Assembly: GCA_009839745.1 (NCBI GenBank)
Contig: VXPE01000041.1
Span: 27,677-91,676 of the forward strand
Source of the DNA: Candidatus Poribacteria bacterium
Lineage (GTDB): Bacteria; Poribacteria; WGA-4E; WGA-3G
Length of the DNA: 64,000 nt
Reading direction: 5' to 3'
The position numbers and the translations under genes are program-made. Every line of letters starts with the position of its first letter. Within the stretch, counting starts at the first letter, position 1. The notes beneath the pieces are model-generated. The model was not told where the DNA came from. It worked only from the letters and a program-made list of their open reading frames with translations, and did no database searches. Shown here in pieces: positions 20,842-26,884 of the stretch.

Positions 20842-21099
20842 ATGGAATTGACTGTTAAATTGACAACCCAGCAGGTTATTGATTTTATCCGACAAATGCC
20901 CGGAGAGGAAAGGTTAGCGGTTGTTCTTGCGCTTGCAAAGGAGTCCCTGCCCGGACGCACTGAACGGATGAAGTCCCTTGAATCAAATGTCCAGAAAATC
21001 TGTGCTGAACGAGGATTAGATTGGAACACAATGACAGACGAGGAGCGCCAAGATTTCATCAACGATGTTGTCCATGAGGACCGTGAATGCGTCCAATAG
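20842..21099 (+). CDS. Putative antitoxin of the PIN pair
   Basis: 85 residues. It is small, charged and helical: TTQQVIDFIRQMPGEERLAV, then ALAKESLPGRTERMKSL, and TDEERQDFINDVVHEDRECV at the end. The C-terminal ERQDFINDVVHEDR-type helix is typical of antitoxins placed before COG1569 PIN toxins. No DNA-binding motif is obvious. A GGAAATTAAA stretch abuts the ATG and resembles the tail of the leader repeat. The next gene starts inside its last codons. Confidence 0.75.
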   Translation: MELTVKLTTQQVIDFIRQMPGEERLAVVLALAKESLPGRTERMKSLESNVQKICAERGLDWNTMTDEERQDFINDVVHEDRECVQ

Positions 21100-21452
21100 T
21101 AGTTTACGATACAAATATCCTGATATCGGGCATGATTTGGGGAGGCACTCCTTATGACTGTATTGCGCTTGCACAACGAAATAGAGTTGAAGCGGGAACC
21201 TGTGCTGAAATACTTGATGAATTTTCGGAAAAGTTAACGACCAAATTTAAGGCTTCTCCGTTGCAAACAGCGGAAATAGTGACTGAACTCCTCACTTTTC
21301 ATCAATCCATCAAAATTGTGAACCAACTTAAGGGTGTCACTGCGGATCCTGATGACGACAAGGTGATAGAATGTGCTGTTGTAGGCGGTGCGACTCACAT
21401 TGTTACGGGTGGTGATAGACCTCCGACTGATGAAGTTTGTGCTACACAATAG
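21087..21452 (+). CDS. PIN-domain toxin (COG1569), C-terminally frameshifted
   Basis: 121 residues of the putative-toxin PIN family (TIGR00305 type). VVYDTNILISGMIWGGTPYD at the N-terminus carries the first metal Asp, AEILDEF the Glu, and DPDDDKVIECAVVGGATHIV the C-terminal Asp cluster. These enzymes cut RNA. After VTGGDR the sequence leaves the family. Normally a helix and a strand follow, and the likely remainder can be seen in other frames (LRLMKFVLHN, then GVDIKEEIIL). The toxin is therefore probably truncated and may be inactive. It overlaps its antitoxin by 13 bases. Confidence 0.8.
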   Translation: MRPIVVYDTNILISGMIWGGTPYDCIALAQRNRVEAGTCAEILDEFSEKLTTKFKASPLQTAEIVTELLTFHQSIKIVNQLKGVTADPDDDKVIECAVVGGATHIVTGGDRPPTDEVCATQ

Positions 21453-21596
21453 GGTGTTGACATCAAAGAAGAGATAATCTTGACCATACTAACGTGAGTT
21501 TGATAAAAGTGGGATGTCGGGTTTCGCTATCGCTATTTAGACGAAAAAGGTCTTGAAAAAAGGCGTATTTTTCCAACTTTTCCAGTTTTTAGGTGT

Positions 21597-21655
21597 ATTT
21601 ACCGCTCTACCTAGAGGAAACACCCCAGCAAAAACACCTACAAATTTATTTTCAA
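21597..21655 (+). repeat. 58-base inverted repeat, left copy
   Basis: It reads TTTACCGCTCTACCTAGAGG, AAACACCCCAGCAAAAACAC and CTACAAATTTATTTTCAA. The copy at 23503-23561 is the same on the other strand with about six changes. It sits exactly at the point where the mod remnant begins. Confidence 0.8.
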
Positions 21656-22343
21656 ACTGGCGTTATCAGAGATATTGATAGAAATAGAGGGCGATGTGTA
21701 TCGGAAATCAAAACTGACGAATTTGTGGAACATTCCAAATGCCAGTTTGCATCTTGAAGGTGGCGTTGAGTTCAAAAATGGCAAAAAACCCGAAGTGTTG
21801 CTTAAAAAAATACTTAGTTTCGGCACGGTTGAAGGCGATCTGATTATGGATTTTCACGTTGGGAGCGGTACAGCCGCCGCGGTTGCTCATAAGATGGGCA
21901 GGCAGTATATAGGCATTGAACAGATGGATTACGTGAAAACCATCACAATAGAACGCTTAACAAAGGTGGTTGCTGGCGAGTCGAGCGGCATCTCCAGATC
22001 TGTCAACTGGCAAGGTGGAGGTGACTTCATTTATTGTGAATTAATGCCCTACAACCAAGTTTTCATGGAACGAATCCAATCAGCAAGATCAAGTGAAGAA
22101 CTTTTGGGCATCTATCGCGATATGTCAAAAGATTCCGTTCTGAATTGGTACATCAAACCTCAAAAACCCGAGGAGGCAGAATAACACTTTATCGCTATCA
22201 ACGACGCTGAGAAACAGAAACAACTGTTAGCGGAGCTGCTGGATAAGAACCAATTGTATGTCCATCTCTCGGAAATAGAGGACGAGACATTTGCGGTCAG
22301 TGAAGCAGATAAAGCATTAAACAGGGCATTTTATGCGGAATAA
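21656..22343 (+). pseudogene. Type III restriction methylase (mod) remnant
   Basis: The C-terminal half of a type III N6-adenine methylase. GGVEFKNGKKPEVLLKKILS and the SAM motif DFHVGSGT with GRQYIGIEQMDY are present. The catalytic DPPY part is missing, because the sequence starts right after the 58-base repeat. A TAA at 22182 interrupts the frame, but the same frame continues with AINDAEKQKQLLAELLDKNQ and SEIEDETFAVSEADKALNRA up to 22343, the ordinary Mod C-terminus. It is therefore truncated and has a premature stop, so it is inactive. Confidence 0.85.
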
Positions 22344-23175
22344 AAAAGTCGCAAAAGGAGCTCCTTCAATCCGTCACTATTTCGTAGATGAAGGCGGCGA
22401 TGGTATCTTATTTTCACGTAAAGGAGAAATTCGCGTTGGGACAGAGGGGTGTTCTCGGTTTTTTATACTCGGTCTACTTGATGTATCGGATCCGTCGGTA
22501 TTAAAGGAGCGTTTTGATGAACTGCGAGCCCGACTGATGCGTGATCCCTATTTCAGAGGTGTACCGTCTATGCAGCCGGACGAGCGAAAGACAGCAGTTG
22601 CATTCCACGCGAAAGATGATTTGCCTGAAGTCCGCAGGGATGTTTTTAGGATTTTACGTGACACTGAAGGATTACGTTTTTTCGCTGTCGTTGCTGACAA
22701 ATTGAGCGTCCTTGAATACGTACGCCAACGCAACAAACGAGAACCTGATTATGGTTATCATCCTAACGAACTTTACGACTATTTGGCAGAATGTTTGTTG
22801 AAGGAACGATTAGGTCAGCATAGCAGCTATAATATTATTTTTTCAAAACATGGGAAATCTGACAGGCTCGACGTTTTGCAGAACCTTGTTGAAACTGCAT
22901 CCGAACGACCATCACAACAACAGAATATCAGCACCGATTCTGTTCCGTATGTATCCGCTGCGACACCGACGGAACATGCAGGTTTGCAAGCAGTCGACTA
23001 TTTTGTTTGGGCACTACAGAGACTCTGTGAACGAGATGAGGAGCGATATCTGGCATATTTATGGAAGGCTTTTCGACTTATACACGATATTGATGATACA
23101 CGGGAAACCATTAATGGCATTTATTATACCCAAAGGAATCCTTTGACAGCGGAGACCTTAAGGTGGAGAAAATAA
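22333..23175 (+). CDS. DUF3800 domain protein
   Basis: 280 residues. YFVDEGGDG near residue 16 and HAGLQAVDYFVWALQRLCER near residue 220 are the two conserved acidic blocks of DUF3800, an RNase H-like fold suspected of nuclease activity. LIHDIDDTRE is near the end. The gene overlaps the last bases of the mod remnant and is intact, while restriction genes on both sides are broken. DUF3800 genes are often found with mobile or defence genes and with structured RNAs. Such an RNA-like element starts one base after its stop. Confidence 0.85.
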   Translation: MRNKKVAKGAPSIRHYFVDEGGDGILFSRKGEIRVGTEGCSRFFILGLLDVSDPSVLKERFDELRARLMRDPYFRGVPSMQPDERKTAVAFHAKDDLPEVRRDVFRILRDTEGLRFFAVVADKLSVLEYVRQRNKREPDYGYHPNELYDYLAECLLKERLGQHSSYNIIFSKHGKSDRLDVLQNLVETASERPSQQQNISTDSVPYVSAATPTEHAGLQAVDYFVWALQRLCERDEERYLAYLWKAFRLIHDIDDTRETINGIYYTQRNPLTAETLRWRK

Positions 23176-23176
23176 G

Positions 23177-23249
23177 AAGTCAGGGATATAGGATTGTACG
23201 AACCGCAGCCCGACAATCACGTGGCATGGAGCCATTTCGTCCCTGACTT
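23177..23249 (+). ncRNA. Three-way-junction RNA candidate, DUF3800-associated
   Basis: P1 is AAGTCAGGGA (23177-23186) with TCCCTGACTT (23240-23249), a perfect 10-bp stem. Inside it are P2, GATTGT/ACAATC with a 15-base loop (23192-23218), and P3, TGGC-ATGGA-GCCA (23222-23234). The layout fits the published observation that several candidate RNA structures (the DUF3800 motifs) lie next to DUF3800 genes. Which motif this is, and its function, I cannot say. It is not a plain terminator, since no U-run follows directly. Confidence 0.65.
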
Positions 23250-23388
23250 TCCAAAATTATAATACATTTAGTGCTAAATGTCAACATTTTTTTTAAAGAT
23301 TTAGTATCAGTAAGGAAATAAGGCGTTTTATGGCGATTCTTGATAAATCGTCCTACATTGAGACGGAAAAAGAAAGGTAGATCGAGAG

Positions 23389-23520
23389 ATGCTAATAGAC
23401 GAGTTTAAGGCAACATATACCTTGCGTTCCAAAGCCGTTCATACCGGAGAACTTCCGCAAACAGTCAAGATTAGGAAAGGTGAGTCTATTCCTAACGTGA
23501 ACTTGAAAATAAATTCGTAG
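23389..23520 (+). pseudogene. Short HEPN-like remnant
   Basis: A 43-codon frame starting MLIDEFKATYTLRSKAVHTG. RSKAVH fits the RNase-type R-x4-H motif of HEPN domains, and ELPQTVKIRKGESIPNVNLK follows. It is cut off where the right copy of the 58-base repeat begins, so it is probably the end of a broken gene. The family call is tentative. Confidence 0.35.
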
Positions 23521-23561
23521 GTGTTTTTGCTTGGGTATTTCCCCCAGGTAGAGCGGTAAAA
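23503..23561 (-). repeat. 58-base inverted repeat, right copy
   Basis: On the minus strand it gives TTTTACCGCTCTACCTGGGG, GAAATACCCAAGCAAAAACA and CCTACGAATTTATTTTCAA, matching the left copy at 21597-21655. It lies at the boundary of the res remnant. Confidence 0.8.
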
Positions 23562-24051
23562 CAACCGAAAAAACGCAACTAATCCGCGTGCTGATGAGAA
23601 TCACGAGGCCGAGCGTCTCGCGAAAGCCGAAGAATGGTTTGCTTTTAATGGTCTCTACGGCACCGGTGAAGAAAAAGCATTCGTGCAATTTCTACAGACA
23701 CATCTTGAGGAGCTACAAAAAACTTACGATGGTGTTTATCTCATCCGCAACGAGAGACATTTTTCCATCTATAATTTTTTTGATGGACAAGCCTTCCAAC
23801 CCGATTTTGTCCTCTTTTTGGGCAAGGAAAACGGTGAGACACTGAGTTACCAACTTTTTATTGAACCTAAAGGCGAGCACATTGAAGACTTTGACAGATG
23901 GAAAGAAGATTTTCTGAAAGAGATTGATACCGAACGTAAAAGTGAACTCATCATAGAGGATAAGCACTATCGCATTATCGGTTTACCGTTTTATCAGGAG
24001 AAAAACCAAAATCAATTCCGTGAAACTCTTGATGAAGTCCTACAATTATAA
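23560..24051 (+). pseudogene. Type III restriction enzyme (res) C-terminal remnant
   Basis: The open frame after the right repeat encodes ERLAKAEEWFAFNGLYGTGE, then VYLIRNERHFSIYNFFDGQA and FQPDFVLFL with QLFIEPKGEHIEDFDRWKED, which is the PD-(D/E)xK nuclease end of a type III Res subunit. The helicase part (about 700 residues) is absent. The piece runs to the normal Res C-terminus. A GTG at 23683 could still start a 122-residue product, but it would be without the translocase. Confidence 0.8.
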
Positions 24052-24076: not shown

Positions 24077-24928
24077 ATGGTAACACAAGAGCAGGTCGAT
24101 TTTTTTCAGGAAAACGGCTACCTTAAATTTGGGAGCGTTTTAGATAGCGATGGCGTTGCAGCCATGCGCGCCGGGTTGGATGCGGTCATTGAATTAGAAC
24201 TTAATGAAGGCGACGATTCCTCACCGGAGTTCAAATACGGACACGACCGACGCGAGAACCGACTCAATCGGGGAAGCGGGCACCCGCGCGCGATTCATCA
24301 GTACATTAACATGTGGAAGCGGGATCCCCATTATGAGGCAGCTATTCATCACCCACTTATCGCTGGGACGGCACGCGCCCTGCTGAATACACCTGAGGTC
24401 CGGCTTTGGCACGATCAGGTGATTTCCAAACCCCCAGAGGATAACGGTCATTTCGCATTCCATCACGATTTTTTCTTTTGGCCCCTCAGCCCACCGAATA
24501 TTGTAAGCTGCTGGCTCGCGTTGGACGATGCAACGGTGGATAGTGGGTGCATGCACGTTATGCCGAAGAGCCACAAAGACGAACGCTTTTCCGTCGCAGC
24601 GAGGGCTGCAGCAAATGCAGCAGCAGCAAAGGCGCGCGAGGCAGGGCGAGAACCGCCGTCTGACCAGTGGGCAGAAAGACGGGAGTTGAGCATTGATCAC
24701 GGCATTCCGGTGGAACTGAAAGCCGGCGAATGCATGTTTCATCACTGTCTCAACTGGCACGGCACGCCGCCGAATGTTACGGAGCATCAACGCCGCGCCT
24801 TCGTCATGATTTTCATGGCACAAGAGGTTTGCTATAACAACGCGCAATCCCCGAACCACGTCCTCGTCCCGACAATCGAGGTCGCGGATGGTGAGCAGCT
24901 CGTCGGCGAAGCGTTTCCCGTCGCGTAA
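24077..24928 (+). CDS. Phytanoyl-CoA dioxygenase family protein
   Basis: 283 residues. QVDFFQENGYLKFGSVLD starts the PhyH fold. The iron site is FHHDFFFW (HxD) and HHCLNWHGTPPN (distal His), with RRAFVMIFM carrying the 2-oxoglutarate Arg. An Ala-rich helical insert (AARAAANAAAAKAREAG) lies between SHKDERFS and the second metal part. It is different in sequence from the dioxygenase at 9756. GAGGA lies about 7 bases before the chosen ATG, which follows MKLLMKSYNY-type residues of a longer frame. Confidence 0.88.
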   Translation: MVTQEQVDFFQENGYLKFGSVLDSDGVAAMRAGLDAVIELELNEGDDSSPEFKYGHDRRENRLNRGSGHPRAIHQYINMWKRDPHYEAAIHHPLIAGTARALLNTPEVRLWHDQVISKPPEDNGHFAFHHDFFFWPLSPPNIVSCWLALDDATVDSGCMHVMPKSHKDERFSVAARAAANAAAAKAREAGREPPSDQWAERRELSIDHGIPVELKAGECMFHHCLNWHGTPPNVTEHQRRAFVMIFMAQEVCYNNAQSPNHVLVPTIEVADGEQLVGEAFPVA

Positions 24929-24992
24929 CTGTACCTCTTTTATACTGTTCGTAGTAGCGCAATTCATTGCGCGTTCAAGTAGGGTTGATCCA

Positions 24993-26264
24993 ATGAAAAA
25001 TTCAACGTTTATTACAAGAGTTGTTCTAAAAAACTATAAAAGCATCGCCGCATGCGATGTCCAATTGGGACCTTTGACGTTCCTTGTAGGACGCAACGGT
25101 TCGGGTAAGAGCAATTTCCTTGATGCGTTGCGATTTGTTGCGGATGCGTTGAACTTATCACTTGACCATGCCATACGCGATCGCGGGGGTATCAATGATG
25201 TTCGCCGCCGTTCTCGTGGGCATCCAAACCATTTCAGCATTCGTCTTGAGTTCGCGCTGCCTGAAGGTTCAACGGGGTACTATGCCTTTCGTATTGCTTC
25301 TCGTCCGCTCGGAAATGGACATGACAGGGTACGAGGAGGTTACCGAGTTCAGACAGAAGAATGTAGAATTCAAAATGAGAAACGCCTCACCCCAGAGCAA
25401 TATTTTCGTATTGATGATGGGACTGTGGATACAAGTGTGAATGTAGCACCCGCTGCTGCATCCGATCGACTCTATTTGGTGAACGCTTCTGGATTGCCCG
25501 AATTTAGACCTGTTTATGATGCATTCTCTCGGATGGGGTTTTATAACCTCAATCCTGATATAATCCGTGATCTCCAAGCACCGGATCCTCGTGATGTGCT
25601 CCTTCGCGACGGGAGTAACCTTACGAGTGTCCTCACCCAACTTTCGCCCATTGTGAGAACAGACATTCAGGAGTATCTATCAGCGGTTGTCCCTGGTGTT
25701 CATGCGGTAGGTGTCAAAGATTTTGGAACGAGGGAGACCTTAGAGTTCAGGCAGAGCGTCACAGGGGACAAAAATCCATGGCGGTTTCGTGCAAATAATA
25801 TGTCCGATGGTACCCTCCGCGTGTTAGGAATTCTGGTAGCACTTTTTCAGGGAGATCAGGACGCACAGAAACGCGTGCCACTCGTCGGAATTGAGGAACC
25901 AGAGATCGCGCTTCATCCAGCTGCGGCAGGTGTTCTGCTTGATGGGCTTCGAGACGCTGCCTACAGAAAGCAGGTTATTGTGACCAGCCACAGTCCAGAC
26001 TTGCTTGAGGACAAGCACTTGGATGTAGAATCAATTCTTGCAGTTGAAGCACAGGATGGGAATACAGCAATCGCTCCTGTGGACGAAGTTGGAAGGTCTG
26101 TCGTGCGCGACAAACTGTTTACAATAGGGGAGCTGCTACGTGTAGATCAATTGCAACCGGATGCGGCATCCGTGGTTTCCGCTGAAAAAGCGAAACAACT
26201 CCGTTTGTTCGATTTTGAGAGAAGAAATTCTGGCAAAACGAAAAATAAGGAAAGACGCGGATGA
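24993..26264 (+). CDS. AAA ATPase, OLD/RecF-like (AAA_21)
   Basis: 423 residues. FITRVVLKNYKSIAACDVQL and Walker A GRNGSGKS (33-40) open the ATPase. DGTLRVLGILVALFQGD is the signature region, and GIEEPEIALHPAAAGVLLDG with VIVTSHSPDLLED is the Walker B and H-loop. It has the ABC-type ATPase plan of OLD and SMC-like proteins but no TOPRIM nuclease domain of its own. The next gene supplies a TOPRIM-like protein and overlaps it by the four bases ATGA, so the two should work together. The pair may be an anti-phage module. Confidence 0.85.
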   Translation: MKNSTFITRVVLKNYKSIAACDVQLGPLTFLVGRNGSGKSNFLDALRFVADALNLSLDHAIRDRGGINDVRRRSRGHPNHFSIRLEFALPEGSTGYYAFRIASRPLGNGHDRVRGGYRVQTEECRIQNEKRLTPEQYFRIDDGTVDTSVNVAPAAASDRLYLVNASGLPEFRPVYDAFSRMGFYNLNPDIIRDLQAPDPRDVLLRDGSNLTSVLTQLSPIVRTDIQEYLSAVVPGVHAVGVKDFGTRETLEFRQSVTGDKNPWRFRANNMSDGTLRVLGILVALFQGDQDAQKRVPLVGIEEPEIALHPAAAGVLLDGLRDAAYRKQVIVTSHSPDLLEDKHLDVESILAVEAQDGNTAIAPVDEVGRSVVRDKLFTIGELLRVDQLQPDAASVVSAEKAKQLRLFDFERRNSGKTKNKERRG

Positions 26265-26884
26265 CGGTCAAAATCGGTTGCATTGTCGAAGGACATGGGG
26301 ATGTAGTAGCTGTGCCACTACTGATTCGCCGCATCGCTGCAGAACTTCATCCAGACATGGGGATTGAAACGCCACGCCCGATTCGTGTTCATAGAAATCA
26401 GGTCATTCAAGCGGATAAGCTTGAGCAGAGGGTTGAATTAGCGGCTCGGAGGATTGGTGGACAAGGAGCTATACTTATTATCCTCGACGCTGATGATGAC
26501 TGTCCTGCACAGCTAGGCCCTGAACTGCTTAATCGGGCATCACAAGCCCGCAGCGATCTACCCATTGCCGTTGTGCTGGCAAAATATGAGTTTGAAGCGT
26601 GGTTTCTTGCAGCAGCCGAGTCACTTCGTGGACAAAGAGAGTTAAGAAACAATATCCAGGCTCCAAACGATCCGGAAACAATCCGTGGGGCAAAAGAATG
26701 GTTAAGTCGACAAATGGAAGGAACCAGAAGGTATAGCGAAAGGTTTGACCAGCCCGCGCTTGCAGCATTTTTTGATATGGAGCAGGCACGCCAAGCGGTT
26801 TCGTTCGACAAATGCTATCGGGACATCACGCGCCTCCTTAGCGAATTACGACAAGCAATGGAGGCAACCCATGAAAATGTGTAA
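26261..26884 (+). CDS. DUF4276 family protein, TOPRIM-like partner of the ATPase
   Basis: 207 residues. VKIGCIVEGHGDVVAVPLLI (EGHGD with the invariant Glu) and GAILIILDADDDCP (the DxD part of a TOPRIM fold) are the family's hallmarks, and VLAKYEFEAWFLAAAESLRG is its third block. It would act as the nuclease or effector of the ATPase. I did not find the partner elsewhere in the window. It is translationally coupled to the ATPase, and the sulfatase starts 15 bases after its end. Confidence 0.8.
   Translation: MTVKIGCIVEGHGDVVAVPLLIRRIAAELHPDMGIETPRPIRVHRNQVIQADKLEQRVELAARRIGGQGAILIILDADDDCPAQLGPELLNRASQARSDLPIAVVLAKYEFEAWFLAAAESLRGQRELRNNIQAPNDPETIRGAKEWLSRQMEGTRRYSERFDQPALAAFFDMEQARQAVSFDKCYRDITRLLSELRQAMEATHENV

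What the first reader, a model, noticed from the sequence alone, without database searches (positions are those of the whole stretch)
23177..23249. Three-way-junction RNA directly after the DUF3800 gene
Seen: 10-bp closing stem AAGTCAGGGA/TCCCTGACTT with two inner hairpins, starting one base after the DUF3800 stop. Known: a published comparative screen described several conserved RNA structures associated with DUF3800 genes. Inference: a functional RNA that is substrate, guide or guard of the DUF3800 protein, possibly in a toxin-antitoxin or defence arrangement.
Basis: partly seen in the sequence, partly recalled or inferred. Interest (0 to 1): 0.8.

Follow-up and report, generated by a model that had tools for sequence, protein, structure and literature searches.

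The report
Small RNA guarding a DUF3800 nuclease
Next to a bacterial nuclease-like gene of unknown function lies a tiny RNA gene, read from the opposite DNA strand, that is conserved across several bacterial phyla and is also carried alone by phages, which suggests it is the safety catch of a toxin-like defence protein.

Summary
The RNA is encoded on the MINUS strand, convergent with the DUF3800 gene. A perfect sigma70 promoter (TTGACA-17-TATAAT, window 23284..23256) fires into it. It folds as a three-way junction with a UNCG-capped hairpin and ends at the DUF3800 stop codon (about 80 nt, 23249 to about 23170). Comparative support is strong: 71 homologous RNAs, 13 of 22 pairs changed on both sides, G-U allowed only on the minus strand. 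It matches no Rfam model. However, a member of the published family DUF3800-IX that I found has the same convergent geometry, so this is a new RNA family of a known kind. Every assessable DUF3800 gene of its clade, and of a more distant clade with a related RNA, carries the RNA. In contrast, 33 of 71 RNAs lack an intact DUF3800 neighbour. About 20 phage records carry the RNA; 19 have no DUF3800. The protein model resembles RNase HII, with a conserved DE motif. Best explanation (inferred, about 0.55): a constitutive RNA antitoxin or guard of an RNase-H-fold toxin, with phage copies acting as decoys. Toxicity, binding and transcription are untested.

The parts
22333..23175 (+). DUF3800 gene (280 aa), RNase-H-fold protein, convergent with the sRNA; its start overlaps the end of a type III methylase remnant
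   Evidence: PF12686 E 1.1e-10; dN/dS 0.13-0.20 against relatives; RNase HII as best solved-structure matches
23170..23249 (-). sRNA gene, predicted transcript about 80 nt from near 23249 to about 23170
   Evidence: R1 match 23171-23247 minus, 85.2 bits; fold
23256..23284 (-). sigma70 promoter TTGACA (23284-23279), 17-bp spacer, TATAAT (23261-23256)
   Evidence: 12/12 match; conserved in relatives
23240..23249 (-). P1 closing stem, 5' arm AAGTCAGGGA (RNA sense)
   Evidence: fold; covariation
23177..23186 (-). P1 closing stem, 3' arm TCCCTGACTT (RNA sense)
   Evidence: fold; covariation
23222..23234 (-). P2 hairpin TGGC-TCCAT-GCCA, the most conserved hairpin (core GAAA..CGGCTCCATGCCGTG in relatives)
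   Evidence: alignments A2, A5
23192..23218 (-). P3 hairpin capped by a UNCG tetraloop (UGCG, 23207-23204)
   Evidence: fold and alignment
23187..23191 (-). conserved junction strand CTATA between P3 and P1
   Evidence: nearly invariant in A2
23168..23176 (-). T-rich tract after P1 (CTTATTTTC), terminator-like, overlapping the DUF3800 stop codon
   Evidence: sequence; 69 of 71 relatives have P1 plus T-tract or a following terminator hairpin

Best explanation
The element is a stand-alone small RNA gene on the minus strand, convergent with DUF3800, expressed from its own strong sigma70 promoter and ending at its closing stem and U-tract at the DUF3800 stop codon. The RNA folds into a three-way junction whose junction strands (GAAA, CUAUA) and P2 hairpin are the most conserved parts. 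I infer that it binds the DUF3800 protein, an RNase-HII-like nuclease, and keeps it inactive, so that the pair works like an RNA-antitoxin/protein-toxin module (type III-like logic, different anatomy): shut-off of host transcription or degradation of host DNA by a phage would deplete the RNA and free the nuclease. Stand-alone copies in phages would be decoy antitoxins. Shown computationally: strand, structure, promoter, conservation, constant adjacency, asymmetry, phage copies. Inferred: transcription, binding, toxicity, activation, anti-phage role.
For: Conserved minus-strand promoter, structure and terminator. DUF3800 of this and the related clade is never seen without the RNA (30 distinct loci; 19 of 19 close and 20 of 20 distant in Anaerolineae), whereas 33 of 71 RNAs have a partial or no DUF3800: the asymmetry expected of toxin and antitoxin. 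Repeated internal deletions of DUF3800 leave the RNA unit intact. RNase-HII-like fold and invariant DE, D122, D222. RNA without DUF3800 in 19 of 20 phage records. Precedents: RCd22 RNA neutralises AbiF by binding it (PMC12373285); phage TE evolved a pseudo-ToxI (PMC5086642).
Against: No expression, binding or toxicity data. RNA-only loci are not significantly more decayed than paired ones, so the RNA may have a use of its own. Poribacteria genomes such as G053, G057 and G082 have the RNA but no DUF3800 of this clade. Many other DUF3800 genes show no antisense RNA promoter (26 of 30).
Confidence: 0.55

Rival explanations
1. The RNA is an obligate cofactor or scaffold that activates the DUF3800 nuclease (an RNP effector), rather than its inhibitor.
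For: DUF3800 never occurs without the RNA; conserved junction and hairpin look like a protein-binding core; DUF3800 proteins are accessory proteins of some Cas12a2 and VI-F loci (PMC10910872, PMC12669027).
Against: RNA-only loci and phages would then carry a useless cofactor; no guide-like variable segment.
Confidence: 0.2
2. The RNA is a cis-antisense regulator of the DUF3800 mRNA (type I toxin-antitoxin-like): the convergent transcript pairs with the mRNA 3' end.
For: Convergent genes that overlap at their 3' ends, by about 20 codons or more in relatives where the sRNA terminator lies inside DUF3800 codons.
Against: In the window the overlap is only the stop-codon region; structure and junction are conserved beyond complementarity needs; RNAs in RNA-only genomes and phages have no such mRNA to pair with.
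Confidence: 0.12
3. The RNA has a function unrelated to DUF3800 (for example a regulatory sRNA of defence islands or phages) and DUF3800 rides along with it.
For: 19 of 71 RNAs have no DUF3800 and are well conserved with good promoters; 19 of 20 phage records lack it; in Poribacteria it often follows a type III methylase gene.
Against: All assessable DUF3800 genes of two clades carry it, in many different gene contexts and phyla; several RNA-only loci keep DUF3800 remnants.
Confidence: 0.1
4. Only a transcription terminator or mRNA 3' structure of the DUF3800 gene, as a plain + strand hairpin.
For: It starts one base after the stop codon and has a long GC-rich stem.
Against: No T-run on the + side; minus-strand promoter conserved in 75% of 71 RNAs at 10/12 or better; G-U pairs on minus only; conserved junction letters.
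Confidence: 0.03

Closest known systems
Rfam DUF3800 motifs (DUF3800-I RF02969, DUF3800-IX RF02968 and siblings from the 2017 comparative screen; the other family numbers are from memory)
   Same: Structured sRNA beside DUF3800 genes. The DUF3800-IX member found in L277 lies 2 nt from the stop of a DUF3800 gene on the opposite strand: the same convergent geometry.
   Different: No Rfam model matches the window RNA or its relatives; different sequence and fold. Function of the published motifs is not established.
AbiF with ncRNA RCd22 (Rfam abiF motif RF03085)
   Same: One structured ncRNA with its own sigma promoter and intrinsic terminator paired with a toxic nuclease-fold protein; RCd22 neutralises AbiF in trans by direct binding (PMC12373285).
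   Different: RCd22 lies upstream on the same strand with two repeated motifs and AbiF is a HEPN protein; here the RNA is convergent, unrepeated, and the protein is RNase-H-like.
Type III toxin-antitoxin systems (ToxIN, CptIN, TenpIN)
   Same: RNA antitoxin logic; phages can evolve RNA mimics (pseudo-ToxI in phage TE, PMC5086642).
   Different: No tandem repeats, no upstream same-strand RNA with a leaky terminator, no ToxN-fold toxin.
Retron type VII (PADLOC model DUF3800_VII; assignment to retrons is from memory)
   Same: A DUF3800 domain as the effector of an RNA-containing defence system; the window protein matches DUF3800_VII at E 1.5e-11.
   Different: No reverse transcriptase was seen among the ORFs around the window locus; the RNA is not an msr-msd.

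Membership tests
Rfam DUF3800-I to -XI RNA motifs | Match to one of the covariance models at gathering score | tested here: not met
   No match in the window, and none of the DUF3800 families at lax thresholds in window or relatives
DUF3800-associated sRNAs (the wider kind) | Conserved structured RNA consistently beside DUF3800 genes | tested here: met
   Covariation and constant adjacency; same geometry as a DUF3800-IX member
Type III toxin-antitoxin system | Tandem-repeat RNA upstream of the toxin, same operon, with terminator between | tested here: not met
   Single RNA unit, convergent, downstream; two copies only in G029 and G063
Type III toxin-antitoxin system | RNA binds and neutralises the toxin protein | not testable with these tools
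   Needs binding and toxicity assays
Type I toxin-antitoxin system | Antisense RNA pairing with the toxin mRNA; small hydrophobic toxin | tested here: not met
   The protein is a 280-aa RNase-H-fold protein; RNAs persist without the mRNA; the convergent geometry itself is shared
DUF3800 protein family | Pfam PF12686 above gathering score | tested here: met
   42.8 bits against cut-off 21
RNase H superfamily | RNase H fold with acidic active-site residues | tested here: inconclusive
   Best solved matches are RNase HII (prob 0.91-1.00, E 1.1e-3 at best) from a model of pLDDT 68; invariant D19, E20, D122, D222
Retron type VII | Reverse transcriptase with msr-msd RNA | tested here: not met
   No RT seen among the ORFs around the window locus; relatives were not checked gene by gene
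RNA-guided nuclease (TnpB/IscB-like) | Variable guide segment beyond the conserved scaffold | tested here: not met
   RNA conserved end to end, terminator at P1

The most novel reading that the evidence does not exclude
A new class of RNA-controlled toxin/defence module: an RNase-HII-like DUF3800 nuclease held in check by a convergently encoded three-way-junction RNA, found in Poribacteria, Latescibacteria, Chloroflexota, a deltaproteobacterial MAG and a cyanobacterial plasmid, against which phages deploy stand-alone decoy copies of the same RNA (one possibly circularly permuted) as RNA anti-defence.
Probability: 0.35. Interest if true: 0.88.

Novelty: new variant of a known kind. Interest (0 to 1): 0.74.

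Why it matters
DUF3800-associated RNAs have been catalogued since a 2017 comparative screen without an explained function. The strand correction, the convergent geometry shared with a DUF3800-IX member, the one-way dependence (protein never without RNA, RNA often without protein) and the phage-borne copies turn them into a testable hypothesis: RNA guards of RNase-H-fold toxins, and phage decoys against them.

Tried and rejected
1) + strand RNA: rejected by G-U/A-C counts and promoter position. 2) Known Rfam motif: none in window or relatives. 3) Mobile element with ends at DUF3800/RNA: the 80-bp inverted repeat around the locus (21586-21665 / 23493-23572) is a dispersed repeat with 13 matches in the genome, not specific to it, and the RNA has only 1-3 copies per genome. 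4) Obligate part of the type III R-M system: many DUF3800-RNA loci sit in unrelated contexts and the window's R-M genes are fragments. 5) Degraded promoters at DUF3800-less loci as proof of relaxed selection: suggested by eye, not significant. 6) Universality for all DUF3800: rejected (4 of 30; L167/L168/L170 show none). 7) RF02969 search rang nowhere, including the control genomes, so it is uninformative. 8) The plasmid search by protein found a single distant match and the phage-record search none.

Full report
WHAT WAS CLAIMED. The arms and the gene are there. The + strand folds better than 200 shuffles (z -3.86), but the minus strand folds better still (-32.1 against -27.6 kcal/mol, z -4.15).

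STRAND. Homologs were found by protein search in Poribacteria genomes and in the GTDB contigs. All 30 distinct homologs with an assessable 3' end carry the element at or over the DUF3800 stop codon. Downstream on the minus strand lies a sigma70 promoter, 12/12 in the window: TTGACA-17-TATAAT. In 71 RNAs, 75% have at least 10/12 matches close upstream, against 1.3% in dinucleotide shuffles and 1.4% on the other side. On the minus reading, consensus pairs show 42 G-U and 2 A-C cells. The third hairpin is closed by UNCG tetraloops, and the closing stem is followed by T-tracts as in CCCTGGCTTTTTTA. In many Chloroflexota and Latescibacteria homologs a second terminator hairpin (AAAGCCGC..GCGGCTTTTTTT) lies inside the last DUF3800 codons. 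So this is a separate sRNA gene of about 80 nt, convergent with DUF3800.

STRUCTURE. Model R1 found 43 matches in 36 of 85 Poribacteria genomes, matches in 34 of 298 Anaerolineae genomes and in 5 of 64 genomes of the Latescibacterial phylum. On 71 RNAs (67 distinct) 98.2% of cells pair. Thirteen of 22 pairs have two-sided changes (59 cells, against 7.3 in shuffles and 5-18 when the partners are slid). This alignment was fitted to the model, so the counts lean towards it, but the MAFFT alignment A2 agrees. More distant DUF3800 proteins (about 150-290 bits to the clade model) carry a related RNA (P2 core GAAAGUCGGCUCCAUGCCGUGCG, then CCUAG) in the same place and strand. Its own MAFFT alignment gives 13 of 21 pairs with two-sided changes. 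R1 and R2 cross-match several members. None of the distant RNAs matches Rfam.

PROTEIN. The DUF3800 proteins share an invariant DE motif (D19-E20 in DEGGD), D122 and D222 and evolve under constraint (dN/dS 0.12-0.20). The AlphaFold2 model is moderate (pLDDT 68, pTM 0.74). The best solved matches are RNase HII structures (prob 0.91-1.00, E 1.1e-3 at best), which also carry a DE(AG) motif (from memory). Nuclease activity is therefore likely but unproven.

ASYMMETRY. Conditioned on the protein, the RNA is always there: 30 distinct loci, 19 of 19 close-clade proteins in Anaerolineae, and 20 of 20 distant ones (16 of these RNAs built model R2, most first seen by promoter and motif). Conditioned on the RNA, 38 of 71 have an intact DUF3800, 14 a partial one and 19 none. 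Several RNA-only loci keep remnants: aa 1-34 plus 256-286 in L063, and 7-90 plus 256-285 in L108. In Poribacteria the RNA may directly follow a type III methylase gene, as if DUF3800 had been cut out. The protein depends on the RNA and not the reverse, as expected for a toxin and its antitoxin. Against this, RNA-only loci are not measurably more decayed (p 0.52 for promoter, 0.09 for pairing), so the retained RNA may have a use, such as protection against incoming copies.

PHAGES. The P2 core occurs in IMG/VR contigs. Twenty records also match R1 or R2, the best with E 5e-16. Some of these are copies of one another (L216/L240/L247, L219/L245). By a stricter test, 7 of 42 distinct pattern matches have an uninterrupted P1 of at least 6 pairs plus CCTA/TCTA, with about 1 expected. 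Neighbours include terminase, portal, endolysin and integrase genes. Nineteen of the 20 records have no DUF3800 by Pfam model, though several are fragments. The exception (L201) has a divergent DUF3800 with the RNA convergent to it. One record (L203) looks circularly permuted, with P3 closing the molecule and P1 as a hairpin (single case). RNA-only phages fit decoy antitoxins, like the pseudo-ToxI of phage TE (PMC5086642).

RELATION TO KNOWN RNAS. A DUF3800-IX RNA (RF02968) found in L277 lies 2 nt from the stop of a DUF3800 gene on the other strand: the same geometry. In Poribacteria, unrelated DUF3800 clades (L166; L179/L183/L189; L164) also show antisense promoters of 10-11/12 and structured RNA at the stop, with different folds. 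This is not universal: among 30 high-scoring DUF3800 genes of Chloroflexota only 4 have such a promoter (0 in the sense control).

VERDICT. It is a new RNA family of a known kind. The most likely role is an RNA guard of an RNase-H-fold toxin; this step is inferred. AbiF and RCd22 (PMC12373285) show that such structured ncRNAs can neutralise a toxin in trans.

Noticed in passing
L203:5355-5410 (phage contig): Apparent circular permutation of the RNA: GGCAATC-CTATA-CTG(GTGA)CAG-GAAA-P2-GATTGCC, folding with P3 as the closing stem.
   Followed up: partly
L166, L179/L183/L189, L164, L182/L187/L188 (3' ends of DUF3800 genes): Unrelated DUF3800 clades in Poribacteria have different structured sequences at their stop codons on the opposite strand, the first three groups with antisense promoters of 10-11/12; the L182 group looks like duplicated RNA units of about 105 nt.
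   Followed up: partly
window 23256-23284 and relatives L010, L013, L015, L017: The promoter spacer holds a palindrome (ACATTTAGCACTAAATGT in the window, ACATTATACGTATAATGT in L013) that could be a repressor operator.
   Followed up: no
window 21675-22345 and 23683-24051: Remnants of a type III restriction-modification locus (methylase C-terminal part, frameshifted; Res C-terminal part by resemblance to L033) on either side of the DUF3800-sRNA pair.
   Followed up: partly
window 21586-21665 and 23493-23572: Two inverted copies (84%) of an 80-bp dispersed repeat, with 13 matches in the genome, flank the locus.
   Followed up: partly
window 24888-26264 and 26261-26884: AAA ATPase of HEC-01A type next to a DUF4276 protein: a likely ATPase-TOPRIM-like defence pair.
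   Followed up: no
window 20842-21099 and 21087-21452: Likely toxin-antitoxin pair: small protein followed by a PIN_3 domain protein.
   Followed up: no
L068:3-1475, L069:19-1482, L031:2029-3336: Unnamed protein family of about 440-490 aa (no Pfam or PADLOC match) with a C-terminal R-x4-H motif like HEPN, repeatedly beside the RNA in Poribacteria.
   Followed up: no
G029:C1:3820907-3821179 (L073), G063:C22:1183-1515: Two tandem copies of the RNA.
   Followed up: no
L205 (Annamia dubia plasmid AP025634.1): Cyanobacterial plasmid with a DUF3800 gene in two frames and two R2-type RNAs, one overlapping its 3' end.
   Followed up: partly
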